Shown: piece by piece, positions 41,286-64,000 of the stretch
Position numbering within the stretch: the first letter of the stretch is position 1
How the letters are laid out: each line of letters opens with the position of its first letter
Assembly (NCBI GenBank): GCA_027475525.1
Contig: JAMWFC010000062.1
Coordinates: 310,001 to 374,000, forward strand
DNA length: 64,000 nt
Direction: 5' to 3'
Source: Macrolepiota albuminosa
Taxonomy: Eukaryota > Basidiomycota > Agaricomycetes > Agaricales > Agaricaceae
Position numbers and translations under genes: made by a program
Notes under the pieces: generated by a model
What the model was told of the DNA's origin: nothing
The model's database searches: none
Seen by the model: only the letters and a program-made list of their open reading frames with translations

Positions 41286-43999
41286 GAGCCTACTGAGCCT
41301 ATGAGTAGTAGTATTAATATGGATGCAAAAGTATGTTCATTTCATAAATCTACAAAGCTAACTTTGACTAAGATAGGAATAGGATTGACAGGTGCAATTA
41401 GATTACTTCAAGAAGCTAGAAGACTATTAGTTGAAGAAAGAAAACATTTACATTATTTGAAAAGGAGTTGTTGACGCTCTTTGTGGCAACTAAATAGATG
41501 CTTCATTTTGACTCCCCATCTTATAATTTCCCTTGCTATGCTTTTGGAGCTGTTTTGGCAGCTTTTATCTGGGGAAAAATCAAGCACATGGCTCAAAATT
41601 GAAACTACTTTGCTGATCTTTGGTACTATGTCTCTTAATGTATTTGGTATAATGCTTATATATTTATTGAGCTCCTGGTTTGTCACTATTAAAATCTCCA
41701 CTGATGTCAATATAAAGTTATTTAATTGCACTGGAGTATATTTAAACCATGTTGAAAGATCACTCACCTGCAACAGGTTTAGATTAATCTTTGAACTAAC
41801 AAAGGAGATTCATAACTTACCAGGTCATTGAAATCAAGACCATAAAGTTTGTTGATATACTTGTCAAATACTTTCTTCCTTATTTTCTTTATTTCATTCT
41901 ATTCTTCATTATTGGTAGCCACCTTGAGCAAGGCGGTGCACTTTGAGATGCTATTTGCCCTTGTTTTCATAGTATGTGGCACTAGTGATGTGATGACACA
42001 ATCAGATGAAAAATTGGAGTACATATTTGTCAATGACATGGTTAAGATATAAGCAGATCTTAGGACTTGGAGTGTAGAATGCAGACCACTCCTTGTTATC
42101 TTTGAAGGTCAGCTGGTACTGACATGCCAATTGAATGAACCTTGGCATGAAAAGATGATGCATTTTGCATGTATGGCATGCAATGCAATATCACAGGCTA
42201 ATTTGAGATATCTATTTATATGCCAAATAAGGTGCTTGAGCATGAGGGCAAAGTTGAGGATGTTAATATTTGTATGTTGCAAACAAAAAGAGATGTTGCA
42301 AAAAGAAGACAGACTAGAGAGTGCATCACATTTGAGAAAGATGTAAACTTTGTGAGTCTTCAATGACATTACACCAAAAAAGCCACAATACAAAAATCAA
42401 CCAACCTGAGCAATACTGAACTAACGGATATCCAAACAGAAGCCACCACTAAAATATTAGAGAGGATTAAGAGGGAGTAGGAGCTAGATTTGCATGAGAG
42501 CATGCTTAAGCAACTTTTGAATATATAAAAAACACCATGAACATAGTTCTCAGGAGAGCAACAAAACACCCTCTAACTGTAAAGCCAAACATCTTGAAGT
42601 ACATATTATATATTCATCACCTTCCATCATGTACTAAAACACAAATTCAAAAGATTATATACAAAAAGATCAAAACAATATCATTTGTAGACTTTCAATA
42701 AACAAAGCGGATACTTTCTTATGCCAATCTTACTATAAACATTAGATGTTGACCTCTGATGGTCTCTATTGCTTCATTTTAAGTGAAATCTTTAGTGTTT
42801 GCATGGCTGATACTTATAAACAAAATGTCTAGTTTTATGTACTAAGAGAGATACCAGTAGTTATATTTGAAGAAATGCAATCGACTTTTTGAATGTTTTC
42901 TGTAGTCTGTATTTAGTGTTTTAGTAGAGTAATTAGTACACATGTTAGTTGACTCATCAGATATAATAACGGAGCTATATAGATACATGCTATTTTTTGA
43001 GGCTTCATTGGAGGCCTAAAGATGCAGTAATTGAGGCAAAAGATTAATTCTTCAGAAAAGGAAGACATGTTGAGTTCATTTGAGTGTTGTTGTTTTTAGC
43101 ACAAAAAAAAACAAAGAAAAGAAATTACAATAACATCACATACAAAACTACGAGGCTGCAGTCAAAACTTTGCAATATTGGAGACGGTGAAGTTGAATTA
43201 CCAGTCTACAATAGAATATGCTAATATTATGGTGACTTGCAATACATGTGCATGCATGATTGTAATTGTGGCTGTGCATAAGTTGACTTGTCAAGCACCT
43301 GCACTGCTACACAGCACTGCCACATACTATGAGGCTACAACTGAAACTTTGCAATATGATAGATAGTCAAGTTGAATTACAAGCATACAAATAGACTATG
43401 CCAAAACATTTCACCAAATATGAGGCAGCTAAATCTCAGATTGAGGGTTGAGAGTGACTTGCAATTGTATAGCAAGGCTTTGAAACCAGATATCACTGTA
43501 GAAGTTGAGAGGAAGGCAAGCTACAATGTCATGCAATGACTATGATGTATGATCATTGTTGCTGATGCATTGGACTCATGGTCTGGTGCCAGTGCATGGG
43601 TTTCCATATGAGTTTGTTGTAGTCCTGTGGCTATCAATAAAGCAGAGAAGGCTTGTGACAGGTAAGGCATCACAACAGTATGTGTTATATGTTGTACAGG
43701 AACTTGCTTTGTACTGTACTATATGTATCTAGTAGAGTCTGCTATATTATAGCAGAGCAGTCCCCACAGTGCTGTAGAATACAGAGCTATGGACATGTTA
43801 CAATGTGCTGTATGACATGGTCTAGTAGATTGATAAAAGGCAGGCACACATATATGCATGCAGACCTAGTAAATGCCAGTAGACACTAGCAGATGTCAAC
43901 GTGCATCAGTGGCCATTAGCCCATGAGGGAAAACCTCCATTGGTGGATGTTATGGCATGAATAAACTTTTCTTAAAGTTCTCTACTTCTCTTCTCTTTT
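41286..43999. other. AT-rich region, no supported gene
   Basis: Several frames encode hydrophobic stretches (41481-41831 and 41849-42052 on +; 42393-42109 on -) but no family is recognisable. A diverged direct repeat of about 70 bp lies at 43144 and 43323 (shared ACTTTGCAATAT and AAGTTGAATTAC). Confidence 0.35.
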
Positions 44000-44153
44000 C
44001 CTTCCTCCCTACAATAACTTAAGGCTATTCACCTCTCCTTCCCTCCTTTTTCCACCTCTGATGCCAGCATACATCTCCTTCCTCCCTACAATAACTTAAG
44101 GCTATTCACCTCTCCTTCCCTCCTTTTTCCACCTCTGATGCCAGCATACATCT
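44000..44153. repeat. 77-bp tandem duplication (two copies)
   Basis: Positions 44000-44076 and 44077-44153 are identical, starting CCTTCCTCCCTAC. It has the same period as the duplications in element B and may be the same assembly error. Confidence 0.9.
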
Positions 44154-44863: not shown

Positions 44864-45801
44864 TGATAGGACCCTATACAGGATCAGCGCATCAACGGCA
44901 GGCGACGGCAACGCGGCACCGACTCAAAATACCTTAGCGCGCGCTAATTATCCAATTTGGGCAATATTTGACGGCCGCGCACGGCAAGAAGCAGATCCAA
45001 TCAATGATAGCGCCGACGGCAGCAGGAATGACAACTGACAGATGGCATCAGTCACTGATGACAGCGCTTAGCGAGAAGCTTGATGATCTATCAAAAACTG
45101 ACGGACAGCTTGGCGTTTGACCTTGGCGTCTGACACTGCTTACCGTCTCGATTTGGCGCCCAACGTCGCTTAGGTGTTCTGACAGACAGAAGGGTGATGG
45201 ATTGATGGTTTAGTACCGCGATCTGCCGCCTGGTGGCGCCAAGGGTCCTCAAAGGACGGTAGGGATCTGAAACCGTTGGAGCTACCCCTATGAAATTTTC
45301 CAGTTTACCGCACTTTGGCGATGGTTGGTCACTGGCAACGGTGAACTCCTTGTAGTATATATATTACTTACCGACTTGTACATACACCATCAGACGAATA
45401 GACCAGAGTTCACTACTCCCCTTTCTTCAGTCTCCCTTACGCCCAGAATTTTATTTACGGTTGGCAACGTCAAACTCATCGGCAGTTGCAGACGCTCGCC
45501 AACACTCGACACCCTCGTGCCTTGCAACTACGGCAGGCATTATCGACACTTAGACTTCGCTAAGCATACCATACTCTTGCCGCTTACCTTTGCCGTGTTC
45601 ACTTACCGCTTCTTCCTAGGCGCTTTACCTTAGCGCTTTACACTTGCCGACACCCGTTACCGACTTTTCCCCTTTTTCACAGACGCGTTCTCTGGGACCT
45701 GCCCGGGACTCCTCAAATCACTTATAACGCGCCCAACGCAAACTCTTGGTATGGTAACACTTTAGTTACATTTGTTCCTGACCAAACTTTGGGCGTCATC
45801 A
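44864..45801 (+). repeat. 5' LTR of element A
   Basis: 938 bp, starting TGATAGGACCC and ending GGCGTCATCA, a TGAT/ATCA terminal inverted match. The start is fixed by the same 45 bp at 55189 after the polypurine tract; the end is inferred from the nearby primer-binding site and the same pattern in element B. The base run before it is GATGG. Confidence 0.85.
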
Positions 45802-45821: not shown

Positions 45822-46184
45822 GATCTCTAGGGCAGAATTCCGCCAGAAACCCGTCTTCAGCGTAGGCGCCGCCTGCTAGACCAGTCGGCAGAAGGCATAG
45901 CTCCTTCCCACCCATCAACTCCACAACCACCTGGTGCCTTACCGGGTCTCTCTCTCGCACAGGAACTACAGAACGCCACTGTAGACGCTTTTCCTGATCT
46001 CTTCCCGCATTCCCTCGATTATAGTGCCGACGACCCCTTAGCGTCGCCCTTTACTTTGCCGCAATCAGTTACCCCCATCACTCCTTTAACACCGCTTTCT
46101 CAATTCGCCATTTCGCTTACCCCGTCACCAACCTCTAGAACTCCTTCCCCACCACCGCTAACTGAACTCGCCAACACAGTCGCT

Positions 46185-48479
46185 ATGGAACAACAAGTCC
46201 AGCGCATGCCGCCACGCAACCACTTCTCGGCACCGAAATGGGACGAGTCCAAGCCACGGGAGCTCTCTCAGTATTTCAAGGAATTAGAGTATTTATTCAG
46301 GGACTGTAACATTACCGACCACACGCAGATGAAGGAGTACGCGGCAAGATACGTATCGTATGACACGGCAGAGACGTGGACAGGTTTGACCGAGTTTGCC
46401 GCCTTTGTTCCTGCCGCCCCACCAGCTCCAGCTCAAGGCGCTTCGTATGAGGACTGGAAGACGGCAGTAATCCAGCTGTACCCTGGCGCAGAGGAGGCTA
46501 CCCGATACACGGTAAACGAGCTGCAGAAACTAGTACAGGAATCTTTCAACAACGGCACTTCTTCTCTTGGCGCATTCTCCACGTATTACCGCGAGTTCCA
46601 GAAAATCGCTAGGTGGCTTCTGCAGAACGGCAAGCTCTATATTAACGAGGAGCGTCGCCTATTTCAGCAGGGCATCCCGACTTCACTGTGGACTCGTATT
46701 GCTCGTCGCCTAGAGATAGTTCATCAGGCCCATCACCCTGACGAGCCCTATAATGTTGCCGACGTCTTTGAAGCCGGTAAATGGGTTCTTAAGGGGACCG
46801 ACACTGGCGTTGGTATACAACGCGCTAGGACGAGCCCACCCCCTGAGCGAACTAACGGTATCATTCCCATCCCGCCTCCTGCTGCCGACTTCGTTAAGAA
46901 AGAGGAGCTCAATGCTGCTATTACCGCCGCTGTCGCTTCCGCTATGACTCGTATTGAAACTATGATCACCACCAACCTCACCGCTAACCGACCCGCTAAC
47001 GTACCCGCACCTGGCCCTTGCCACTTTTGTGGAGAAATTGGCCACACCATGACTAGAGGACGTTGCGCTACCCTTGAGAATTATATTCGGCAAGGGAGAA
47101 TCCGAAGGGCTATCGACGGCAAGATAGTTTTTACCTCTGGCGCCACCATCCCCAACTACCCAGATAAGAAGTCCTTCCAGGAGCGGGTAGATGAATGGCA
47201 TAGACGCAATCCAGGACAAATCGTTACCGGCACGCTTTCTGGCAACGCCAACCCCGACCCTGACCAGGCGACTCAACAGCAAATGATCCACGAGGTCCTA
47301 CATTTCGACAGCGTTGGCGACCGCCCTACCTTCTCGTGGGAAGAGCGAATTGCTAAGTTACAGCAGGAGCTGGATTCGCTTAAGAATCAGGTGTTTGATG
47401 GGGTTGAAGTTAAGCAGCCCAAACAGCCTCTTAAAGGATACAAGCCAATGCCTCCCGCTAGCAAGCTACCGACGCCTGCTCCTGCCCCTGCTCCTGCTCC
47501 AGAACCATCGTCGTCTGCTACTGTTCCTGAACCGCCTTTGCCGCCTCTCCATCCCTACTCAGGGATTCCCGACCGATACCATGCTCCCGCACAACGAAAC
47601 TTTGCTGCTCCCGAGAAACGTCCTGAAGGTGGTTACCGACCTACTGCGCCAATTTTCGACATAGAGAAATCGAACCACGTCTTTAACCGCATCATGAAAA
47701 CCGCCGTCACCTTGTCAGTAGAAGAACTTTGCAGTATTGCTCCCGACGTCCGCAACCAGGTCAAAACGGCAGTCACTCCTCGACGACCCTTGGCGACAGC
47801 CATTGCCGAAGTTGATGAACTCGACGACGCGCTTCCTGGTTTTTCTGTTACCATCGATGCTCCCGACACCGATGAAACTCTTGCCGACCCCATCGCTAAC
47901 GCCACTTCTGTGGACCCAGTGGAGACCTACCTTAGGTCAGTGGACCATGGAGAGGACCCCGCCATCCTTACCATCGCTCAAGAATCGCACGCTATCCGCT
48001 CAGTTGCGCTAACGGTAGACAACAAGCACGAGGTAGAGGCAATCGTGGATAGCGGGTCTCAGATTATTTCTATGGCAGCAGAAGTCGCTAACGATTTGGG
48101 TCTCATTTATGACCCTACTGTTATATTAAACATGCAGAGCGCTAACGGTACCGTGGACAGATCCCTAGGCCTCGCCAAGAACGTGCCGTGCACCCTTGGC
48201 AACATCACCTTTTACCTCCAAATACATATCTTGTGCTCCCCGGCTTACGACTTATTACTCGGCAGACCCTTCGACGTCTTGGCACGATCAGTCGTCAAGA
48301 CAGTTACCGACGAGGAAACGACCCTCACAATTAGCGACCCCAATTCCGGAATCCGACGAACGGTGCCAACGTTCCCTAGGGGACAACAAAAAAGCGCCCT
48401 CGCCAAGCCACCGGAGTTTACCGACCAACACGCCAACGAACAACCCTACCGGTGTTTTCACAAACCATCGAGGAGGTGA
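46185..48479 (+). CDS. Element A gag-protease polyprotein
   Basis: 764 aa from the ATG at 46185; the frame is open upstream to 46056 without another ATG, and element B conserves the same MEQ start. The N-terminal half is a gag capsid region (RMPPRNHFSAPKW, FKELEYLFRDC). A CCHC knuckle CHFCGEIGHTMTRGRC lies near residue 280, then a coiled segment and Pro-rich linkers. The aspartic protease near the C terminus has the DSGS active site (EAIVDSGSQIISMAAEVA) and the closing LLLGRPFDVLA. The stop at 48477-48479 overlaps pol in the -1 frame (GTGA). Confidence 0.88.
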   Translation: MEQQVQRMPPRNHFSAPKWDESKPRELSQYFKELEYLFRDCNITDHTQMKEYAARYVSYDTAETWTGLTEFAAFVPAAPPAPAQGASYEDWKTAVIQLYPGAEEATRYTVNELQKLVQESFNNGTSSLGAFSTYYREFQKIARWLLQNGKLYINEERRLFQQGIPTSLWTRIARRLEIVHQAHHPDEPYNVADVFEAGKWVLKGTDTGVGIQRARTSPPPERTNGIIPIPPPAADFVKKEELNAAITAAVASAMTRIETMITTNLTANRPANVPAPGPCHFCGEIGHTMTRGRCATLENYIRQGRIRRAIDGKIVFTSGATIPNYPDKKSFQERVDEWHRRNPGQIVTGTLSGNANPDPDQATQQQMIHEVLHFDSVGDRPTFSWEERIAKLQQELDSLKNQVFDGVEVKQPKQPLKGYKPMPPASKLPTPAPAPAPAPEPSSSATVPEPPLPPLHPYSGIPDRYHAPAQRNFAAPEKRPEGGYRPTAPIFDIEKSNHVFNRIMKTAVTLSVEELCSIAPDVRNQVKTAVTPRRPLATAIAEVDELDDALPGFSVTIDAPDTDETLADPIANATSVDPVETYLRSVDHGEDPAILTIAQESHAIRSVALTVDNKHEVEAIVDSGSQIISMAAEVANDLGLIYDPTVILNMQSANGTVDRSLGLAKNVPCTLGNITFYLQIHILCSPAYDLLLGRPFDVLARSVVKTVTDEETTLTISDPNSGIRRTVPTFPRGQQKSALAKPPEFTDQHANEQPYRCFHKPSRR

Positions 48480-51400
48480 TTGGCGACGATCACGGAGATG
48501 TGGCGCTAACGCTAGAATATGACTATTCAACTGGTCTTGTAAATGTTATGTCTACCGCTTTTCTTGACAAAGATGTTTTAACTACTACCGACGCAGAACC
48601 TCCCCAGAAAAGTCAAAACATTACCAACTCCTCTCTTGCCTACTTGTACCTTACCGCTTCCGAATCTTTTCAGAATATTGCGTCTACAGATACCTATCTC
48701 ACCACTCTTCCTGGAGCCTCGTCTCCTGCCGTTCTTGGACTTACCGCTCCTCAGGCTACAGTTCCCCTTTCTACCTCTGTTTATAACCAGGCTAACGCTC
48801 CCAAAAGGAAAGGGGTTCAAGTTAAAAAGAAATATAAGCCAGTTGCGCTTAAAACAAAACCCATCGCTACGCACTCTCCCGAGACTTTCAGAATTGAGCG
48901 CCAGATCATTGGTGACCCTCTTGCCGACATACCGACTTTATCACCAAATCCGCCACCCTTTCAGCCGACAGGACGTTTTACCGAGGAACGCCAGCAGCAG
49001 TTCGCCAAGGAGCACGACACAGGATTTTTGACCAAAGATGAGTTGAACGTCCTTACCGATCTTGTCGCTAAGCAAGACAAAGCCTTCGCCTGGGAGGACT
49101 CAGAATGCGGCAGCCTACGTACAGACTTCTTCCCGCCTGTGGTGATTCCGACCATTCCTCACGTGCCGTGGACTGAGCACAACCGACCGTTACCGCCTGG
49201 GATCGAAGCCGAGGTCTGCCAGATCATTAGGACCAAGATACAGGCTGGCGTCTACGAGCCCTCCAATAGTTCTTACCGCTCTCGTTGGTTTTGTGTCCTC
49301 AAAAAGAACGGCAACCTACGTATAGTCCACAGCCTTGAGCTGCTGAATAGAGTTACAATACGACACTCTGGCGTACCGCCTTTTCCTGACCACTTTGCCG
49401 AGTCCTTTGCCGGGCGTATCTGTGGCGCCACCCTTGATCTCTACGTTGGCTACGATGAACGCTTGATACACCCTTCTTCCCGCGATCTCACTACTTTTCA
49501 AACTCCATTTGGCGCTTTGCGCCTAGTCACCTTACCGATGGGCTGGACAAACTCAGTCCCCATATTCCATGACGATATCACCTTCATCCTCCAACCCGAG
49601 ATACCGCATAATGTCTTTAGCTTCATAGATGACGTTGGCGTCAAAGGCCCCAAAGACTGGCGACTCGTAAACGGCTTACCGGCGACCCATCCCGACAACT
49701 CCAACATTTGCTTAGCGCTATGGGAGTTCTTCCAGCTGCTCAATCGAGTTCTCCAACGTATGAAGTATAGCGGTGGTACGTTTAGCGGTCACAAACTCCT
49801 CCTTTGTGCGCCAAGGTTCAAAATACTCGGTCACATCTGCACTCCCGACGGTCGCGTTCCCGACGAGTCTCGCTTAGCACTCTTGGAGCGATGGGGCCCT
49901 TGCCGCGACTTATCTGAAGTTCGCGCCTTTCTTGGCACCGTTGGCGTTCTCAGGATATTCGTCAAAAACTTTGCCCATCGCGCACACGCCCTTAACCGAC
50001 TCACCCGCGCCAACGAGCCCTTCGAATTTGGGCCAGACCAGGTCACTGCCCAACGCGACTTAGTAAAAGCCCTACAAGACGCCAAGCCCCTAGTCCCCAT
50101 CGATTATACCTCTGCCGACCCTGTTATCTTGGCGGTGGATACCTCGTACATTGCCGTTGGTTACTTCTTGTGCCAGTGCCTTACCGACAATCGGAAACAG
50201 CGACGCTACAACCGCTTTGGGTCGATCACGCTAAACGACCGAGAGTCTCGCTACAGTCAGCCTAAGCTAGAGCTCTATGGACTCTTCAAAGCCTTCCGGT
50301 CGCTAAAGATGTATTTGATTGGCGTGCGGAACCTTATTGTTGAAGTCGACGCTAGGTACATCAAAGGCATGCTGCAGAATCCCGACATCCAGCCATCCGC
50401 TAGCATGAACCGGTGGGTAGTCGCTATCCTCATGTTTCACTTTGAGTTGGTACACGTCAAGAGCTCTTTCCACGGCCCAGATGGACTCTCTAGGCGACCA
50501 CGGCAGCCTGGCGACCCGGTAGTGGACCCTCAGGCTGATAGCGATTTCGAGGACTGGATCGACCGCTTACATGGTTTCGTGCACCTCATACAACAGCCAA
50601 TCCCCCTATTACGACGGCAACAGCCTACCAGCATCCTGTTACATCCCATCGTCCCTTACCGCCCCGAGACCTTTAGCGCACCCCTCACGTTCTACACGGC
50701 AAGCATCCTTAAACAAGACTTGCCGCCAGTAAAAGTCGTACAGGAACCCCAGTCGCTAAGAGAAGACAGCAGAAACCTGACCTACGATGCCGTCCCCCGA
50801 TCCGCCAAGGCAAAGGCAGAGGACAGTCGTCTGTTAATGGTTGAACAATGGCTACAAGACCTTAAGCGACCCCCAGACCTTACCGACGAACAATACGCTA
50901 CCTTTATCCGCTATGCTACCCGCTTCTTCTTTACCGACAACCGACTTTGGCGACGAAATCGAGATGGCGCTCACAAGCTGATCATCAAGCCAGAAAGTCG
51001 CTTACGAGTCCTACGCGCCATGCATGACGAGCTAGGACATAGAGGTCTGTACGCTACTCGAGCTTCTCTGTTAGAACGCTTCTGGTGGCCACACGCTAGT
51101 GCCGACATCGCCTGGTACATCAGGACTTGCCACCTCTGCCAAATTCAACAGATACGCCAAGTGCTCATTCCGCCAACCGTTGCAACGCCAGCTCCACTCT
51201 TCAGCAAAATCTACGTCGACACCATGCATCTGCCTAAGTCTGGTCGCTACAAGTACATCATTCAAGGTCGTTGCTCGCTAATCCACTGGCCTGAATTTCG
51301 AATGCTCCAAAGAGAAAATACCGACGCGGTCGCCAAGTGGCTATTTGAGGACGTCATTTGCCGTTGGGGAGCGCTAAGAGAAATCGTCACGGATAACGGT

Positions 51401-52192
51401 GCACCCATTATCAAAGCGCTAACATATCTTGCCAAGAAATACAACATTCACCACATTCGAGTATCTGGCTACAACAAACGCGCCAATGGCCTGGTAGAGA
51501 GACCCCACTTTGACGTTCGGCAAGCGCTCTTCAAGGCAGTCGATGGCGACGAGTCTCGTTGGAGCGAAGCGACCTATTCAGTGTTCTGGTCGGAAAGAGT
51601 TACTATTCGTAAGCGCATGGGTTGTTCTCCCTATTACGTGGCTACTGGCACCCATCCGTTACTCCCTGCCGACATTATAGAAGCGACCTATCTTCAGCCA
51701 GCACCCAACAGTATCTTAGTGACTACCAACCTTATCGCCAGACGAGCTATTGATCTCCAGCGAAGGAAAGAAGATTTAGAGCGACTCCACGAGATAGTCT
51801 TTAGCGCCCGTCGCCAAGCAGCCCTGCGATTCGAAACCAAGCATAGCGCCACTATCAAAGATTACAACTTCCCGAGAGGAGCGCTAGTGCTTATGCACAA
51901 CTCCAAAATTGAAACCTCATACAATAAGAAAATGCGCCCGCGCTATCTGGGACCTTTGGTAGTTATCTCTCGTAACCGTGGAGGCGCTTACATGCTCTGT
52001 GAATTAGATGGTTCAGTACTGCATCGACCTGTTGCCGCTTTTCGCCTATTACCGTATCTCGCCAGGGAACAAATTGACTTGCCGCTTGAAGCGCTAGATA
52101 TCGACACCGCCAAGCTGAGAGAACTTGAAGAAACCGAACTATTGGACGATGATGACTTGCCGACTTTAGTTGAAGAAGAAGAAAACGATTAG
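48452..52192 (+). CDS. Element A pol: reverse transcriptase, RNase H, integrase
   Basis: Open frame of 1246 codons; the exact start is unknown because it is probably made by -1 frameshift at the TGTTTTC site near 48453 or by restart at GTGA (48476). The RT spans about 230-480, with RSRWFCVLKKNGNLRIVHS, ATLDLYVGYDERLIHP and the catalytic FIDDVGVKGP near 390. RNase H has VILAVDTSYIAVGYFLCQC near 560. The integrase has an H..H..C..C domain (LGHRGLY, CHLCQ near 860-900) and the catalytic residues in YVDTMH, VTDNGAP and the glutamate of ANGLVERPHF, with about 34 residues between the last two. The C terminus (RYLGPLVVISRNRGGAYML) is a usual integrase tail. No damage is seen. Confidence 0.92.
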   Translation: MFSQTIEEVIGDDHGDVALTLEYDYSTGLVNVMSTAFLDKDVLTTTDAEPPQKSQNITNSSLAYLYLTASESFQNIASTDTYLTTLPGASSPAVLGLTAPQATVPLSTSVYNQANAPKRKGVQVKKKYKPVALKTKPIATHSPETFRIERQIIGDPLADIPTLSPNPPPFQPTGRFTEERQQQFAKEHDTGFLTKDELNVLTDLVAKQDKAFAWEDSECGSLRTDFFPPVVIPTIPHVPWTEHNRPLPPGIEAEVCQIIRTKIQAGVYEPSNSSYRSRWFCVLKKNGNLRIVHSLELLNRVTIRHSGVPPFPDHFAESFAGRICGATLDLYVGYDERLIHPSSRDLTTFQTPFGALRLVTLPMGWTNSVPIFHDDITFILQPEIPHNVFSFIDDVGVKGPKDWRLVNGLPATHPDNSNICLALWEFFQLLNRVLQRMKYSGGTFSGHKLLLCAPRFKILGHICTPDGRVPDESRLALLERWGPCRDLSEVRAFLGTVGVLRIFVKNFAHRAHALNRLTRANEPFEFGPDQVTAQRDLVKALQDAKPLVPIDYTSADPVILAVDTSYIAVGYFLCQCLTDNRKQRRYNRFGSITLNDRESRYSQPKLELYGLFKAFRSLKMYLIGVRNLIVEVDARYIKGMLQNPDIQPSASMNRWVVAILMFHFELVHVKSSFHGPDGLSRRPRQPGDPVVDPQADSDFEDWIDRLHGFVHLIQQPIPLLRRQQPTSILLHPIVPYRPETFSAPLTFYTASILKQDLPPVKVVQEPQSLREDSRNLTYDAVPRSAKAKAEDSRLLMVEQWLQDLKRPPDLTDEQYATFIRYATRFFFTDNRLWRRNRDGAHKLIIKPESRLRVLRAMHDELGHRGLYATRASLLERFWWPHASADIAWYIRTCHLCQIQQIRQVLIPPTVATPAPLFSKIYVDTMHLPKSGRYKYIIQGRCSLIHWPEFRMLQRENTDAVAKWLFEDVICRWGALREIVTDNGAPIIKALTYLAKKYNIHHIRVSGYNKRANGLVERPHFDVRQALFKAVDGDESRWSEATYSVFWSERVTIRKRMGCSPYYVATGTHPLLPADIIEATYLQPAPNSILVTTNLIARRAIDLQRRKEDLERLHEIVFSARRQAALRFETKHSATIKDYNFPRGALVLMHNSKIETSYNKKMRPRYLGPLVVISRNRGGAYMLCELDGSVLHRPVAAFRLLPYLAREQIDLPLEALDIDTAKLRELEETELLDDDDLPTLVEEEEND

Positions 52193-55188: not shown

Positions 55189-55233
55189 ATGATAGGACCC
55201 TATACAGGATCAGCGCATCAACGGCAGGCGACG
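55189..55233 (+). repeat. 3' LTR of element A, first 45 bp
   Basis: Identical to the start of the 5' LTR (TGATAGGACCCTATACAGG onward) up to GGCGACGG, where element B begins. Confidence 0.88.
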
Positions 55234-55537
55234 GTGATAGGCTTCTACTCGGACTGAGCGCATCAAGGGACATTATAGGCCGACCAACACTTGACACACT
55301 AAAGGCTCTAGCGACCAGCCTTGGGTACAGAGCAGCCCTAGCGCGGGCGCTCTATGGCAAGACTTATCCATTCATCTCAATCACCAGCATCAGCCCCTCA
55401 GCGCACTCCACTCAGTTACTTTGAAGACCAAGAAGACTCAGGACTCATAGCGCTAGCATAACGGTGGGAGGGGACTCTGACCAAACCCCGATCAGTACTG
55501 GAAGGAGTTAGCAATTGGCGCTGTCAATCACCGAGGC

Positions 55538-55691
55538 ACCTCAATCAGAAGTCTAAAAGAATCAATGACGATGAGACAGGATACACGCAGACCCAACATT
55601 TAAATCTATCAAAAACCTCAATCAGAAGTCTAAAAGAATCAATGACGATGAGACAGGATACACGCAGACCCAACATTTAAATCTATCAAAA
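55538..55691. repeat. 77-bp tandem duplication in LTR B
   Basis: Base identity at offset 77 from 55538 to 55614, exactly 77 positions. Confidence 0.92.
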
Positions 55692-56087
55692 TATGGTACA
55701 ATGTTTAGCGCCGGAATTAGCGCTCACGGCGTCTGTCGAGGATTCCCCGACCATACCCCGGGATGGCATGGCCAATTAAATTACATCAAAAAGTGAGCAA
55801 ACTCGTACCACTTCTAAGTAGTTTTAGAGTCGCCGTTGGTCGCCGTCACCCATGCGCTGCAGGTCGCCGTTGACAGGTGGCCGTTAGCTACAGTCACGAA
55901 GAGAGGCGCTAATTGGTAGCGCCGTCAATGGACTTATTTTGGAAATAATGTAGCGCATAGTATAAAAACTAGCTACTTGCCATGTATATAACAACGAATC
56001 GTAACCTCTTGAGCACCCAGTTACACTTAGCGTTCAAATCGCGCTAGCGTTGCCTGACTTTGCCACCAAGTTTGGCGCTAGCTTCGT

Positions 56088-56242
56088 CTATCTCGTCTTC
56101 GTCGTTTACGGTGCCACCTACGGGCACGCTACGCTGCGCTATTCGTTTCTTTCTCTATAACTTCCTATCTCGTCTTCGTCGTTTGCGGTGCCACCTACGG
56201 GCACGCTACGCTGCGCTATTCGTTTCTTTCTCTATAACTTCC
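56088..56242. repeat. 77-bp tandem duplication in LTR B, one mismatch
   Basis: Offset 77, 78 positions matched except one A/G difference (GTTTACGG versus GTTTGCGG). Confidence 0.9.
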
Positions 56243-56433
56243 CTAAACTACGACGCTTACCACTTGCTAGGTAGCATCCGAGGCGCTATCGTCTAGCGCA
56301 TCGCCCTATCACCTCTGCTCGAGCACACCGGGACCCTGCCGGGACTCCTCACAAACCCGTACGCCAGGCGCTGGAGACGGCGTTGTACTGCGTATACGTC
56401 CAGCGCACCCAACCACAGTTGGCGTCATCATTT

Positions 56434-56450
56434 TGGAGCCCACCGCGAGG
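56434..56450 (+). other. Primer-binding site of element B
   Basis: TGGAGCCCACCGCGAGG, identical to that of element A and 3 nt after the LTR. Confidence 0.7.
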
Positions 56451-56551
56451 GGTTCTATTGAGGCAGAATTCCGCCGGAAACTCGAGCCCAGCGACAGCGC
56501 CGCCTCCTATTGGAGAGCGCGTTTGAACAAACCTTAACTGAGTCACCACAC

Positions 56552-56705
56552 TTACCAGGCGCGCTACCGAGGCAGACTTTAGATCAGGAGCTTGAAGCCG
56601 CTCCAGATAGCTTGGCTGAAAGCTTCTTTTACCAGGCGCGCTACCGAGGCAGACTTTAGATCAGGAGCTTGAAGCCGCTCCAGATAGCTTGGCTGAAAGC
56701 TTCTT
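56552..56705. repeat. 77-bp tandem duplication upstream of gag B
   Basis: Identity at offset 77 from 56552 to 56628, exactly 77 positions. Confidence 0.92.
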
Positions 56706-57259
56706 CCATTTTCCCGACCGTTCGAATACTTAGCAGGTGAAAACCATACACCGCTTACTCCTTTGGAAGAGCTGTCTAGGTCATTATCGCCAGAACCTAG
56801 CGACTCAGAATTACCCAAGCCAGTACCGACTACAACTACGCCAAGCGAAACTACCACTAACACTACTATTCCCACCACGACGTCGACACCAGCTAGTATG
56901 GAGCAGGCAAACACACCGCGTATGCCGCCAAGAAACCACTTCTCGTCGCCAAAATGGGACGAGACGAAACCTCGCGAGCTAACACAGTATTTCCGAGAAT
57001 TGGAATATTTATTACGCGACTGCCGAGTCACCGACAACACACAAATGAAAGAATACGCCGCCAGATACGTTTCCTACGACACCGCGGAATCCTGGACGGG
57101 ACTGGATGAGTTTCAAGGATTAACACGAGAGGCGGTGCCAAGGGCGTTTACCTACGAGGAATGGAAAAAGGCGATCATTAAACTGTACCCTGGCGCTGAG
57201 GAATCCACGCGCTATACCGTCCTTGAAATCCAGAAACTGGTACAGGATACCTTCGCAAT

Positions 57260-57414
57260 GGGCATTTATACACTAGGCACGCTATCTACTTATTATCGAG
57301 ACTTCCAGCGAATTGCAAGATGGCTAGTGCAGAATGGGGCATTTATACACTAGGCACGCTATCTACTTATTATCGAGACTTCCAGCGAATTGCAAGATGG
57401 CTAGTGCAGAATGG
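57260..57414. repeat. 77-bp tandem duplication in gag B
   Basis: Identity at offset 77 over 78 positions (one may be chance). Confidence 0.92.
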
Positions 57415-57648
57415 CAAACTCTACAGGAACGAGGAACGGCGCTTGTTTCAACAAGGCATTCCACATCACTTTGGACTCGTATAGCTCGTCGCTTAGAAAT
57501 TCTTAAGTCCGACCACCATCCTGAGGAACCCTACGATATAGAAGACGTCTTTGAAGCAGGTAAATGGATACTGAAAGGCACGGATACTGGCATCCCCTTC
57601 CAGCGACCTTCTAGCACTGATAACGGAGGAAAGGCGCCACCTGTTGCG

Positions 57649-57803
57649 GCGCCCGCACCTAGCGCAACTAACAATCAGGGAGGTTTTGTCAAGAAGGAGG
57701 ACCTGGAAAACGCAGTCAACACGGCGCGCCCGCACCTAGCGCAACTAACAATCAGGGAGGTTTTGTCAAGAAGGAGGACCTGGAAAACGCAGTCAACACG
57801 GCG
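57649..57803. repeat. 77-bp tandem duplication in gag B
   Basis: Identity at offset 77 over 78 positions. Confidence 0.92.
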
Positions 57804-58189
57804 TCGCAAACGTTATGAGCAAATTGGAAACGTTAATCTCGACTAGCCTTAATGCGCCACGAGGTAATATGCAATCCGGCCCTTGTCACTTCTGTGGTGA
57901 GGCAGGACATACGATGACTCGCGGACGCTGCGCTATCCTCGAACAATACCTGCGCCAAGGAAGAGCACGCCGAGGCGCCGACGGGAAAATAGTCCTACCC
58001 TCCGGCGCTAACATCCCTCTATATCCTGAGCACCGAACCTTCCAGGGGCGAATTGATGAATGGCATCGACGTAACCCTGGGAACTTAGCAACGGGCAATC
58101 TCAATAGTACGGCCGCAGCGGAGGCAGAAACAACTCCACAACAGGCGCTAATCCATGAAGTACTCCAGCTTAACGCTGTTAGCGAGCGA

Positions 58190-58343
58190 CCGACGTTGTC
58201 ACGAGAGGAGAGGATCGAGACGTTGGAAAGGGAGCTAAAGTCGCTAAAGAATCAGGTTTTCGATGGCCGACGTTGTCACGAGAGGAGAGGATCGAGACGT
58301 TGGAAAGGGAGCTAAAGTCGCTAAAGAATCAGGTTTTCGATGG
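58190..58343. repeat. 77-bp tandem duplication in gag B
   Basis: Identity at offset 77 from 58190 to 58266, exactly 77 positions. Confidence 0.92.
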
Positions 58344-58753
58344 GTCGAGATTAAAAAGAGCAAGCAACCGTTGAAAGACTATAGACCTTCAGGCGCTACG
58401 ACCGATCCAGCACCTGCAAAGCCTTCGAATTCCAGTATCAACGACGACACACCTGATACGGCCAAAGCGCCAGCTAGCACGGAACCGCCACTACACCCGT
58501 ATTCAGGACTTGCCGGTAACTACGCTCCGCCTATCAATCGAAACTTTGGAGCGCCAGACAAGCCAGCAGGAGGCTACCGACCAACGGCACCAATCTACGA
58601 CATAGAAAAATCTAAGCAAGTATTCGATCGTATTATGAAAAGTCAAGTCACGATGTCGGTAGGGGAGCTATGCAGTGTGGCGCCAGACGTCAGGAATCAG
58701 ATGCGTACAGCGGTAACCCCTCGACGGAACGTAGCTAACAATGTAACGGCGGT

Positions 58754-58907
58754 GGACGAATGCGACGACGCGCTACCTGGATTCGCGTACATAACCGAGA
58801 CGGTCGCGTCGGAAATCAAAGAAGAGGCCGGGACGAATGCGACGACGCGCTACCTGGATTCGCGTACATAACCGAGACGGTCGCGTCGGAAATCAAAGAA
58901 GAGGCCG
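58754..58907. repeat. 77-bp tandem duplication in gag-protease B
   Basis: Identity at offset 77 from 58754 to 58830, exactly 77 positions. Confidence 0.92.
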
Positions 58908-59653
58908 CCCACCTAAAGAAGCTACGTCCATTGACCCGGTCGAAACTTACCTTAAGTCGCTAAGATCTAGCGACGATCCCGCCGTCCTCACTGTAGCCCA
59001 AGACTCTCACGCGATTCGCTCGATTATGTTGACAGTTGATGGAAAAAGCGAGATAGAATCTATAGTGGACAGCGGATCACAGATTATTTCAATGGCTGCC
59101 GACGTCGCTAACGAGCTTGGCATCATTTACGACCCGACCATCATTCTTAATATGCAAAGCGCTAACGGCACTATTGATCGATCCTTGGGAATGGCTCGTA
59201 ACGTGCCATGCGCTGTTGGCGATCTTACGTTTTACCTTCAAATACACATTCTTAGGTCGCCTGCGTACGACTTATTATTAGGGAGGCCCTTCGACGTCTT
59301 AGCCCGATCAGTAGTCAAGACGACGTCTGAAGACGAAACGACGCTAACTATTAGCGACCCTAACTCGGGCGTCAGAAGAACGGTACCAACGTTTCCACGG
59401 GGGAAATTCCAGAAACCGGGACCGAGAAAGCGACCTTACGTTAGCGACGACCCTTGCGAGTGTTTTCCGGCGCCATCGAGGAGATGAGTGATGAGGATCA
59501 TGGAGATGAAGCGCTTATCTTGGACTATAACCATCGGACTGGGCAAGTAAACTTTATATCCTATACCCCTTTAGCCCATGAAATCTTGAATTCTTCTTCG
59601 TCGCTTACTAGTGACGCGTTATCCTACTTATACCTCACTGCGTCAGATATTAC

Positions 59654-59807
59654 TGAAAACCTTTCAACAGACACTTATTTCGTTTCTACTCCCGACTCTA
59701 AAGAATCTTTGATATCAGGTTTCGCTAGAATGAAAACCTTTCAACAGACACTTATTTCGTTTCTACTCCCGACTCTAAAGAATCTTTGATATCAGGTTTC
59801 GCTAGAA
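59654..59807. repeat. 77-bp tandem duplication in pol B
   Basis: Identity at offset 77 from 59654 to 59730, exactly 77 positions. Confidence 0.92.
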
Positions 59808-60099
59808 CCATGACTCTATTTATAATACGTTTGCTAACAATAGTACCCCTAAGCGCAAAGGGGTTCAGGTCAAGAAGAAATATAAACCCGTAGCGCTTAA
59901 AACAAAACCGGTAGCAAGCGCCGTACCCGAGGAATTTCGCATCGAAAGAAAAATAATAGGCGACCCTTTGGCTACCCTGCCAAAACTCGATCCGAATCCA
60001 CCACCCTTTGAACCAACAGGACGATTTACAGAAGAACGAAAGGCGCTATTTCTTAGCGCCCACGATACCGGCTTCCTCTCGACGGAGGAAATGAACGTA

Positions 60100-60253
60100 C
60101 TAGTCGACATCATGCAAAAACAGAATGAGGCTTTTGCATGGGAGGACTCAGAACGCGGTAAACTTAGAACTGACTTCTAGTCGACATCATGCAAAAACAG
60201 AATGAGGCTTTTGCATGGGAGGACTCAGAACGCGGTAAACTTAGAACTGACTT
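60100..60253. repeat. 77-bp tandem duplication in pol B
   Basis: Identity at offset 77 from 60100 to 60176, exactly 77 positions; it creates a TAG stop at the junction. Confidence 0.92.
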
Positions 60254-60821
60254 TTTCCACCAGTGGTCATCCCAACCATACCGCACGTACCCTGGACTGA
60301 GCATAACCGACCCATACCCCCGGGCATCGAAGCCGAAGTCTGCCAAATTATTCGCTCCAAGATAGCGGCAGGTGTATACGAGCCTTCTAATTCGGCCTAC
60401 CGCTCGAGGTGGTTCTGCGTACTAAAGAAAAACGGGAAGCTACGTATAGTTCACAGCCTAGAACCGCTAAACAAAGTCACCATTCGTCATTCAGGGGTAC
60501 CGCCATTTCCCGATCACGTCGCTGAATCTTTCGCGGGACGAATATGTGGCGCTACCCTGGATTTGTACGTAGGCTATGACGAGCGCTTAATCCATCCTTC
60601 CTCTCGCGACTTGACGACATTTCAAACACCGTTTGGGGCGCTACGACTAGTCACACTTCCTATGGGATGGACAAACTCGGTACCGATATTTCACGACGAT
60701 ATTACGTTTATCCTACAGCCCGAAATACCCCACCATGTGCTCAGTTTCATAGACGACGTAGGAGTTAAAGGCCCGAAGGATTGGCGATTGGTGGATGGCA
60801 AGCCCGAAGTTCACCCGGAAA

Positions 60822-60975
60822 ATCCTAATATTCGCATGGCGCTATGGGAATTCTTTCAACTGGTTAACCGAGTACTTCAGCGCATGAAGTATTGTGGCAT
60901 CCTAATATTCGCATGGCGCTATGGGAATTCTTTCAACTGGTTAACCGAGTACTTCAGCGCATGAAGTATTGTGGC
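60822..60975. repeat. 77-bp tandem duplication in pol B (RT)
   Basis: Identity at offset 77 from 60822 to 60898, exactly 77 positions. Confidence 0.92.
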
Positions 60976-61592
60976 GGACGTTTTCAGGGCACAAGCTCGT
61001 TCTTTGCGCACCGCAGTTTAAAATTTTGGGGCACGTTTGCACGCCAGAAGGCAGGATTCCAGAAAAGAGCCGATTAGCGCTGTTGGAGAAATGGGGGGTC
61101 TGTCATAACCTCTCGGAAGTTCGCGCGTTCTTGGGCACTGTAGGGGTGCTGCGCATGTTCATACACCATTTTTCTCATCGCGCAAACGCCCTTAATCGCC
61201 TAACCCGTTCAGGGGTCCCCTTCGAATTCGGACCCGATCAAATCAATGCCCAGAAGGACTTAGTAAAGGCGCTACAGGAAGCGAAACCATTGGTACCCAT
61301 TGACTATACTACCGCCGATCCCGTTATACTTGCTGTTGACACATCATATATCGCCGTTGGCTTCTTCTTATGCCAGTGTGATAGCGCGAACCGGAAAATC
61401 AGGCGCTACAATCGTTTCGGATCGATTACCCTTAACGACCGAGAATCGCGCTACAGTCAGCCCAAGCTAGAGTTATATGGCTTGTTTCGATCGTTTCAGG
61501 CGCTGCGCATGTACCTCATTGGGGTACGAAATCTCATTGTCGAGGTCGACGCACGATACATCAAAGGAATGCTTCAGAACCCTGATATTCAA

Positions 61593-61747
61593 CCGTCGGC
61601 CAGTATGAACCGCTGGGTAGTAGCGATATTAATGTTTCACTTCGAGTTAGTACACGTCAGAAGTGCATTCCGTCGGCCAGTATGAACCGCTGGGTAGTAG
61701 CGATATTAATGTTTCACTTCGAGTTAGTACACGTCAGAAGTGCATTC
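61593..61747. repeat. 77-bp tandem duplication in pol B (RNase H)
   Basis: Identity at offset 77 over 78 positions. Confidence 0.92.
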
Positions 61748-62469
61748 ACGGGCCGGACGGATTATCTAGGCGACCCAGACAACCGGAAGATGAAGCGCTA
61801 GACGATAGCGACAACGATGTATTTGACGATTGGATCGATCGATTGCATGGTTTCATGCACATCATTCAGCTGCCTATTCCGGCGCTTCGCGAAGACCAAC
61901 CAGTTTCAAATTGGCTTCACCCTATTGTTCCGTACCAGCCCCGACCATATCAGGCGTCATCAACTTTTTACACGGCCAGTATCTATAACGTCGCTAAGCC
62001 ATCTAACGATCTAAAGATAGTCGAGGAACCAAGACCCTTAAGAGAAGACAGTCAGAACCTGCCATATTCGGCGGTACCTCGAAGCGCCAAAGCTAAGTCA
62101 GAAGATCAGCGGGTGGACCAGGTTAGGAAGTGGCTACAGGATTTGCGACGACCATCAGACCTTACGGATACGGAATACGCCACCTTCATTCGATACGCGA
62201 CGACCTTCTTTGTAGTGGAAAACCGACTTTGGCGACGAAATAGAGATGGCGCCCACAAGCTAGTAATTAAACCGGACAATCGAATTAGAATTCTACGCGC
62301 TATGCACGATGACTTGGGACACCGTGGACTCTACGCAACAAGAGCGAACCTTTTGGAGCGCTTCTGGTGGCCTCAAGTTAGCGCCGATATTGCGTGGTAT
62401 ATTCGCACTTGTCATCTCTGTCAAATCCAGCAGACACGTCAGGTTCTTATTCCCCCAACAGTAGCGACT

Positions 62470-62623
62470 CCAGCGCCGCTATTTGGAAAAATATATATCG
62501 ACACCATGCACATGCCCAAGTCAGGGCGCTACAAGTATATCATTCACCAGCGCCGCTATTTGGAAAAATATATATCGACACCATGCACATGCCCAAGTCA
62601 GGGCGCTACAAGTATATCATTCA
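62470..62623. repeat. 77-bp tandem duplication in pol B (integrase)
   Basis: Identity at offset 77 from 62470 to 62546, exactly 77 positions. Confidence 0.92.
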
Positions 62624-63428
62624 GGAAGGTGTTCCTTGGTACATTGGCCGGAGTTCCGTATGCTCCAACGAGAAAATACAGACGCTATAGCTAAGTGGCT
62701 CTTTGAGGACGTTATCTGCAGATGGGGAGCCCTTCACGAGATCGTCACAGACAATGGAGCGCCGATAGTTAAGGCGCTCACTTATCTTGCCAAGAAGTAC
62801 AACATTCAACACATACGGGTTTCTGGTTACAACAAGCGCGCCAACGGAATCGTAGAAAGGCCTCATTTTGACGTTCGACAGGCGCTATTTAAGGCGGTCG
62901 ATGGTGACGAAAGTCGCTGGAGCGAAGCGACTTATTCGGTCTTCTGGTCGGAAAGGGTTACCGTACGAAAAAGGATGGGTTGTTCACCCTACTACGCGGC
63001 GACCGGCACCCATCCACTCCTCCCGGCCGACATAGTGGAAGCTACTTACTTACAGCCACCCCCGAATTCGATACTATCTTCCACCGACATGATTGCTAGG
63101 CGCGCTATAGACTTACAGCGACGCATGGAGGATCTCGAGCGCTTACACGAAGTAGTATTTCAAACTAGACGACAAGCTGCGCTACGATTTGAAAGCGAGC
63201 ACAGCGCCACGATTAGAGACTACAACTTCACCTCTGGCGCCCTCGTACTAATGTGCAACTCAAAGATCGAAGTTACCCATAACAAAAAGATGCGACCTCG
63301 GTATCTGGGACCCCTAATAGTGGTTTCCCGCAATAGGGGAGGCGCCTATGTACTCTGCGAGTTGGACGGCTCAGTTTTGCATCGACCAGTAGCGGCGTTT
63401 CGACTCATCCCCTACTTAGCGCGGGAAC

Positions 63429-63582
63429 ACATTCCCTTACCTTCGTCGGCGCTGGACATTGACACGGCTAAACTACGAGAACTGGAAGAAACGGAGTTAG
63501 TGGATACATTCCCTTACCTTCGTCGGCGCTGGACATTGACACGGCTAAACTACGAGAACTGGAAGAAACGGAGTTAGTGGAT
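63429..63582. repeat. 77-bp tandem duplication at the pol B 3' end
   Basis: Identity at offset 77 from 63429 to 63505, exactly 77 positions. Confidence 0.92.
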
Positions 63583-63767
63583 GATGACGAGACCCTGTTG
63601 ACGACGACGAAGAACAGTAAATGAAGGCGAAGGACGAGGCGCTAGGTGTTAGCGCCCCCGTTAAGTAAACTTAGGTCATGTTTCCCTTTCGGAAGGCATA
63701 TTGGATGGCATAAATAGCTATGGTACAGGCGAGGACACAAAATCAACTACGGCTACTACGTTACGAG

Positions 63768-64000
63768 CTACGCTGAAGAAGACCGGCGACGAGAACCTCG
63801 GACTCGCTCCCTGGGCCGCCTAAAGGAGGGAGGACCGCCTGAAGGAGGAAGAGGGGCGCCTGGTGTAGGCACCGGAGTGCTCGAAGGCGGCGCGTTGCGA
63901 GGTACGGCGGGAGGAATGCAGGATGAAGGTACTGGAGCGCTAGGAGTTGGCGCAGGAGGAAAGGCGGCGCGTTGCGAGGTACGGCGGGAGGAATGCAGGA
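63768..64000 (-). CDS. Possible antisense ORF of element B, C-terminal part
   Basis: A minus-strand frame open from the window edge to TAG at 63770-63768 encodes a Pro-rich end (PPAVPRNAPP, PTPGAPLPPSGGPPSFRR, RERVRGSRRRSSSA). Its place just after pol and its orientation match the antisense gene of element A, but the residues do not resemble the C terminus of that protein. Compositional bias could keep such a frame open by chance, and the duplication at 63884 lies in it. Confidence 0.3.
   Translation of the reverse strand, partial: LHSSRRTSQRAAFPPAPTPSAPVPSSCIPPAVPRNAPPSSTPVPTPGAPLPPSGGPPSFRRPRERVRGSRRRSSSA
63884..64000. repeat. 77-bp-period duplication, cut by the window end
   Basis: Sequence from 63884 recurs at 63961 and stays identical for the 40 bases available. 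Confidence 0.88.

What the first reader, a model, noticed from the sequence alone, without database searches (positions are those of the whole stretch)
55538..64000. Fourteen tandem duplications, all with a period of exactly 77 bp, in one retroelement
The direct repeats at 55538, 56088, 56552, 57260, 57649, 58190, 58754, 59654, 60100, 60822, 61593, 62470, 63429 and 63884 all have offset 77 and match over 77-78 bases (the last is cut by the window end). Only one mismatch was seen in all of them. They have unrelated sequences and irregular spacing, and each coding one breaks the frame. No mutational process I know gives one fixed length at many unrelated sites. The simplest explanation is an assembly in which graph edges overlapping by k=77 were joined without trimming, inside a repeat that the graph could not resolve. 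Element B then would be intact in the genome and wrongly read as a pseudogene.
Basis: partly seen in the sequence, partly recalled or inferred. Interest (0 to 1): 0.88.

Follow-up and report, generated by a model that had tools for sequence, protein, structure and literature searches.

The report
Assembly error duplicating 77-base stretches
The fourteen 77-base repeats are real in the sequence file, but they are very probably an error of assembly or correction software that recurs in many parts of this probably fungal genome assembly, not a biological feature.

Summary
Confirmed: 14 tandem duplications of 77 bp lie in element B (one with a mismatch, one running past the window end), and a fifteenth at 43999. 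No other offset from 1 to 3000 gives an exact run of 40 or more. They are very probably an assembly artefact, and not confined to this element: 39 units lie in 20 arbitrary 10-kb stretches, in 13 of 20. In 78 of 87 comparisons another copy of the element has no unit near B's site, in 8 one in another register, in 1 the same unit. B's two LTR matches differ in length by 77+76. The base after B's units is polymorphic among five copies at 8 of 14 sites, against a mean of 0.45-0.70 at other offsets, as a k=77 de Bruijn branch point predicts. By majority of relatives, 21 of 27 comparable units also lack one base, always to the right in contig orientation on either strand. At three sites oppositely oriented copies carry mirror-image units at the same place, within one base. 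Whether B is intact remains untested.

The parts
55235..64000 (+). element B: Ty3/Gypsy-type LTR retrotransposon, continuing to 69629 (window numbering); plus-strand frames inside the window are 364 aa or less
55235..56430 (+). 5' LTR of element B as bounded by BLAST, 1196 bp, with two 77-bp units; the matching 3' LTR lies outside the window at 68587-69629 (1043 bp), no unit in it
55538..55691 (+). tandem unit 1; net +77 against unit-free relatives, no base lost
56088..56242 (+). tandem unit 2, one mismatch; the second copy carries a base not seen in 13 relatives' matches; net +76
56552..56705 (+). tandem unit 3; net +76
57260..57414 (+). tandem unit 4; no base lost; the base before the unit differs from all six placed unit-free relatives
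57649..57803 (+). tandem unit 5; net +76
58190..58343 (+). tandem unit 6; net +76; mirror-image unit in L035, its site one base apart
58754..58907 (+). tandem unit 7; net +76
59654..59807 (+). tandem unit 8; net +76; mirror-image unit in L035 at the same site
60100..60253 (+). tandem unit 9; net +76
60822..60975 (+). tandem unit 10; net +76; five other places in the assembly carry a different base after the unit's end
61593..61747 (+). tandem unit 11; net +76; L034 has a unit two bases out of register here
62470..62623 (+). tandem unit 12; net +76; mirror-image unit in L035 at the same site; L036 carries a unit over the same 77 bases
63429..63582 (+). tandem unit 13; net +76; a homopolymer a few bases to the right is one base short; no branch base found in the assembly
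63884..64000 (+). tandem unit 14, cut by the window end (first copy 63884-63960); like unit 13, but read by eye only, as could not compare it
43999..44153 (+). fifteenth 77-bp tandem unit, outside element B; the closest other copy in the assembly (98%) spans 76 bp less; eight more distant matches (74-82%) span the query at about full length

Best explanation
The 77-bp units are an artefact of a software step with k=77. Shown by calls: one unit length over 294 kb of this assembly; nearly all comparable copies of element B have no unit, or a unit in another register, at B's sites; in B the unit ends at a base that differs between copies at 10 of 14 sites; most comparable units also lack one base within about 55 bases to the right; the side follows the contig, not the element's strand. 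Inferred: a short-read de Bruijn step (assembly, correction or polishing) walked each contig from left to right and, at an ambiguous position, wrote out the whole junction 77-mer where a single next base belonged. In a minority of cases (LTR sites, 57260) it only left the 77-base overlap untrimmed. The program is not identified. The confidence given is for 'artefact of a k=77 step'; the exact form is less certain (see the first two rivals, which are variants of it).
For: One offset. Not local: 39 units in 20 arbitrary 10-kb stretches, 13 of 20 hit. Of 87 placements of B's 14 units in 12 other loci of the family, 78 have no unit within 155 bases, 8 one in another register, 1 the same. The two LTR matches of B are 1196 and 1043 bp, difference 77+76, pieces otherwise 98.5-99.7% identical. 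The base after the unit is polymorphic among L032-L036 at 8 of 14 sites; 20,000 random-offset draws reached at most 5; one more site, one. Right-hand loss in contig orientation: 21 of 27 comparable units by majority of relatives, none left-hand, 6 without loss: 11 of 13 in B (plus strand), 10 of 13 on minus-strand loci, 0 of 1 in L005 (plus). Of four pairs of units from opposite contig orientations, three are mirror images at the same site (two exact, one a base apart) and one covers the same 77 bases with the loss on the other side. Away from a copy's own units, 0 of 631 bins of 60 bp show a private one-base loss. In 4 of 5 imperfect units tested (of 11) the first copy agrees with all or nearly all relatives and the second carries the private base; the fifth had no relative.
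Against: 63429 and 63884 have no other next base in the assembly by exact search with the last 24 and 29 bases of the unit; a nearby homopolymer is one base short instead, and L033:3876 looks alike. Outside B the base after the unit is polymorphic in only 5 of 14 comparable units (few relatives each). The base before the unit is polymorphic at 0 of 14 sites, so only one kind of branch is seen. L036 has the same unit as B at 62470. For the 43999 unit eight distant matches span the query at about full length. 49 further bins had mixed lengths among relatives, mostly 76-77 and some 1-2 bases. Mismatch positions in imperfect units are unexplained. 8 of 35 listed units had no relative to compare. 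No reads were available.
Confidence: 0.9

Rival explanations
1. One reading: de Bruijn edges overlapping by 77 were concatenated without trimming, inside repeats only.
For: Exact 77 in 73 of 84 units; units in B end at branch bases; 6 of 27 comparable units show no lost base.
Against: 21 of 27 comparable units lack one base on the right; one unit with its left flank found no second match in the assembly; the base before the unit is polymorphic at 0 of 14 sites.
Confidence: 0.2
2. The raw long-read consensus had one-base deletions, and a k-mer polisher inserted the preceding 77-mer instead of the missing base.
For: A homopolymer near some units is one base short; the loss is always to the right in contig orientation; the first copy agrees with relatives and the second carries private bases in 4 of 5 tested.
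Against: No private one-base loss away from a copy's own units in 631 bins; in B the lost base is a polymorphic one at 9 of 14 sites.
Confidence: 0.4
3. Real 77-bp tandem duplications made by a cellular process such as replication slippage, template switching or a mobile unit.
For: None beyond the sequence itself; L036 shares one unit with B, which could be read as descent.
Against: One fixed length at unrelated sequences; the side follows the contig and not the element strand; two LTR matches of one element differ in length by exactly the units; units end at paralogue-polymorphic bases.
Confidence: 0.01

Closest known systems
False duplications in genome assemblies, 'homotype' and 'heterotype' (Ko et al. 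2022, PMC9516828; title, abstract start and passages seen)
   Same: Sequence present once in the genome appears twice in the assembly and misleads annotation.
   Different: The passages seen describe haplotype or read-error duplications, often with gaps between the copies, not a fixed unit of k bases beside a lost base.
k-base overlap between neighbouring edges of de Bruijn assembly graphs (recalled; largest k of 77 is a common SPAdes setting, from memory)
   Same: Junction sequence of exactly 77 bases that ends at a branch base.
   Different: Here the overlap stands twice in the final contig, and mostly one base is missing.
Ty3/Gypsy LTR retrotransposons of fungi (one of 120 listed homologues of element A's pol names an organism, Mycena chlorophos)
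   Same: A pair of matching LTRs in B; protease, RNase H and integrase zinc-binding domains in the related element A.
   Different: Nothing unusual was seen in the element itself; many of its frame breaks fall in the units.

Membership tests
k=77 de Bruijn junction artefact | one fixed unit length throughout the assembly | tested here: met
   294 kb of 100.1 Mb sampled: 61 runs of 50 or more at offset 77, 3 at all other offsets from 20 to 1500
k=77 de Bruijn junction artefact | unit ends at a base where copies differ | tested here: met
   B: 8 of 14, two more, not at 63429 and 63884; other loci 5 of 14
k=77 de Bruijn junction artefact | pure overlap, no other change | tested here: not met
   6 of 27 comparable units only; 21 of 27 lack one base as well
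k=77 de Bruijn junction artefact | absent from reads | not testable with these tools
   no reads held
software artefact in general | side follows the contig, not the biological strand | tested here: met
true tandem duplication or minisatellite | shared by descent among near-identical copies | tested here: not met
   1 of 87 placements has the same unit in the same register; the duplicated junction at 60822 occurs only in B by exact search
Ty3/Gypsy LTR retrotransposon (element B) | two near-identical LTRs | tested here: met
   as bounded by BLAST
Ty3/Gypsy LTR retrotransposon (element B) | pol domains in Gypsy order | tested here: inconclusive
   integrase zinc-binding domain in one of two B fragments scanned; RNase H then integrase zinc-binding in the related element A, where no reverse transcriptase family was listed at E 0.001

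The most novel reading that the evidence does not exclude
The full signature (exact k-base tandem unit, a lost base beside it, always to the right in contig orientation) is a general, undescribed software fault that also sits in other public assemblies, where it would create false frameshifts and pseudogenes by the thousand, and it can be detected from the FASTA file alone. No other assembly was examined here.
Probability: 0.3. Interest if true: 0.5.

Novelty: not a real feature. Interest (0 to 1): 0.2.

Why it matters
If the 20 stretches were representative (they were picked at round coordinates in contigs known to hold the element, so this is rough), 39 units per 200 kb would mean some 20,000 units and about 1.5 Mb of false sequence in this 100-Mb assembly. 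A net gain of 76 or 77 bases shifts any reading frame it falls in. Gene models, pseudogene counts, element ages and structural comparisons made on this assembly would be wrong in part. A plain scan of s[i]=s[i+d] over d shows the fault at once.

Tried and rejected
A biological cause was rejected on the contig-orientation tests and the single length. An artefact limited to element B was rejected. One search gave net lengths, but its side assignment is not valid because it was anchored on the left only, anchored on the unit, replace it. I first took L035 to lack single bases without a unit at three of B's sites; one search showed that these are L035's own mirror-image units. The base seen after the unit at 60822 could have been the first base of a second copy; one search found the duplicated junction only in B, so it is a variant. 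Literature: five searches of the held PMC library about the artefact (15 of 32 listed, 20 of 81, none) showed no title or abstract start that describes a fixed-length k duplication; two searches for this assembly returned no paper. Of PMC9516828 only passages were read; the other papers were seen as listings only. The species could not be named.
Full report
What is there. The window is bases 310001-374000 of contig C16 of an unnamed 100.1-Mb assembly in 129 contigs. It holds two related Ty3/Gypsy-type elements. Element A (frames 46056-48479 and 48452-52192) has long open frames with protease, RNase H and integrase zinc-binding domains and no 77-bp unit. Element B runs from a 5' LTR match at 55235 to a 3' LTR match that ends outside the window at 69629. 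One of the 120 listed homologues of A's pol protein names an organism, the mushroom Mycena chlorophos, so the host is probably a basidiomycete (inferred).

The observation. Offset 77 is the only offset from 1 to 3000 with exact runs of 40 or more in the window. There are 15 such runs, the 14 reported and one at 43999. The last reported unit is complete in the neighbouring stretch.

Not local. In 20 stretches of 10 kb, chosen at round coordinates on 14 contigs, there are 39 units in 13 of 20. Over 294 kb, exact runs of 50 or more number 61 at offset 77 and 3 at all other offsets from 20 to 1500. Of 84 units found in the window and 34 loci (L002-L036 without L001), 73 are exact. Of these 73, 43 match no further than 77 bases, 20 by one more, 6 by two and 4 by three to six, as chance extension would give (inferred). 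A unit in L019 and its left flank found no second match in the assembly; only the last part of the query did. A 98% copy of the L029 query spans 77 bases less, and the closest copy (98%) of the 43999 query spans 76 less. Against this, eight more distant matches (74-82%) span the 43999 query at about full length; that stretch also has a 37-38-base periodicity.

Comparison with relatives. For the first LTR unit, 40 of 1177 candidates were scored: 34 match only from the second copy on, the window itself and five others match from base 1, the five at 88-94%. Of those five, L002-L005 were fetched and carry 77-bp units of their own nearby, in other registers where could place them (L002, L003, L005). 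B's 14 units were placed 87 times in 12 other loci of the family: 78 have no unit within 155 bases, 8 have one in another register, and 1 (L036 at 62470) has the same unit. The five longer copies L032-L036 carry 0, 1, 2, 4 and 3 units. Within B itself the 5' LTR match is 1196 bp and the 3' match 1043 bp. The difference, 153, is 77+76, which is what the two units in the 5' LTR measure against other copies. LTRs of one element start identical (established knowledge), so this is an internal control.

Branch bases. A de Bruijn junction k-mer ends where copies differ. Among L032-L036 (three to five usable per site; copies with a unit of their own nearby dropped) the base right after the unit is polymorphic at 8 of 14 sites. 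The mean at other offsets is 0.45-0.70 of 14, and 20,000 random-offset draws gave at most 5. At 60822 five further places in the assembly carry another base and are not copies of the duplicated junction. At 62470 the variant shows. At 63429 and 63884 exact search with the last 24 and 29 bases of the unit found no other next base except B's own junction. The base before the unit is polymorphic at 0 of 14 sites. For units outside B, with few relatives each, the base after the unit is polymorphic in 5 of 14.

Lost base and direction. Anchored on the unit, 27 of 35 listed units could be compared with unit-free relatives; 8 could not, and units within 60 bases of a locus end were left out. By majority of relatives, 21 of 27 lack one base within about 55 bases to the right in contig orientation, 6 lack none, and none lacks one to the left. 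The votes were split at L035:125 (3 to 1, counted as no loss) and L036:2114 (3 to 1). B, on the plus strand, shows it in 11 of 13; minus-strand loci in 10 of 13; L005, on plus, not. Away from a copy's own units, 0 of 631 bins of 60 bp showed a private one-base loss; 49 of those bins had mixed lengths among relatives, mostly 76-77 and some 1-2 bases. Four pairs of units from opposite contig orientations were mapped to one coordinate system. Three are mirror images on opposite sides of the same site, two exactly and one a base apart; in the fourth, L036 carries the same 77 bases as B at 62470, with its site on the other side. A cellular process cannot know in which orientation a contig is written to file; software can.

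Imperfect units. Of 11 imperfect units, five were tested: in four the first copy agrees with all or nearly all relatives and the second carries the private bases; the fifth, in L002, had no relative. In those four the second copy is therefore the false one (inferred). In five of the 11 the mismatch lies 16-20 bases from the left end, with no explanation.

Mechanism. Most likely a k=77 short-read graph step, run left to right on contigs, wrote the junction 77-mer in place of the next base at ambiguous positions (inferred). Two rivals of the same kind, plain untrimmed overlap and a k-mer polisher acting on one-base deletions, each explain part: homopolymer cases favour the polisher, polymorphic-base cases the graph. 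All three are artefacts of k=77. The program is unknown.

Consequence for element B. Of nine plus-strand frames of 150 aa or more in B's part of the window, six end inside a unit, so its frame breaks cannot be taken as biological. Its intactness cannot be asserted either. In the unit-free piece L032 the frames reach 865, 760 and 451 aa, against at most 364 aa in B's part of the window.

Noticed in passing
   Followed up: partly
window 20611-26396: A two-frame non-LTR retrotransposon: a 607-aa frame with no Pfam match, then a 1321-aa frame with endonuclease, reverse transcriptase and RNase H domains; no 77-bp unit in it.
   Followed up: partly
window 46056-52192: Element A, a relative of B (69-77% DNA identity in the blocks), has long open frames and no 77-bp unit although it lies about 3 kb from B.
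   Followed up: partly
window 55190-55234, 44864-44908; contig position equivalent to window 73407-73451: 45 bp directly left of B's 5' LTR match recur exactly at 44864 and at 96% beyond B's 3' end, so B may sit in another repeat.
   Followed up: no
L033:3876, L036:1135, L036:2114, window 63429 and 63884: At these units a homopolymer several bases to the right of the unit is one base short, instead of the adjacent base being lost.
   Followed up: partly
window 56088, L002:380, L014:7714, L030:6139, L035:6075: Mismatches between the two copies lie 16-20 bases from the left end in contig orientation in these five of 11 imperfect units.
   Followed up: partly
L012 (C107:500001-510000): An AT-rich stretch (33% GC) with a PIF1-type helicase frame, perhaps a Helitron, carries three 77-bp units.
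   Followed up: no
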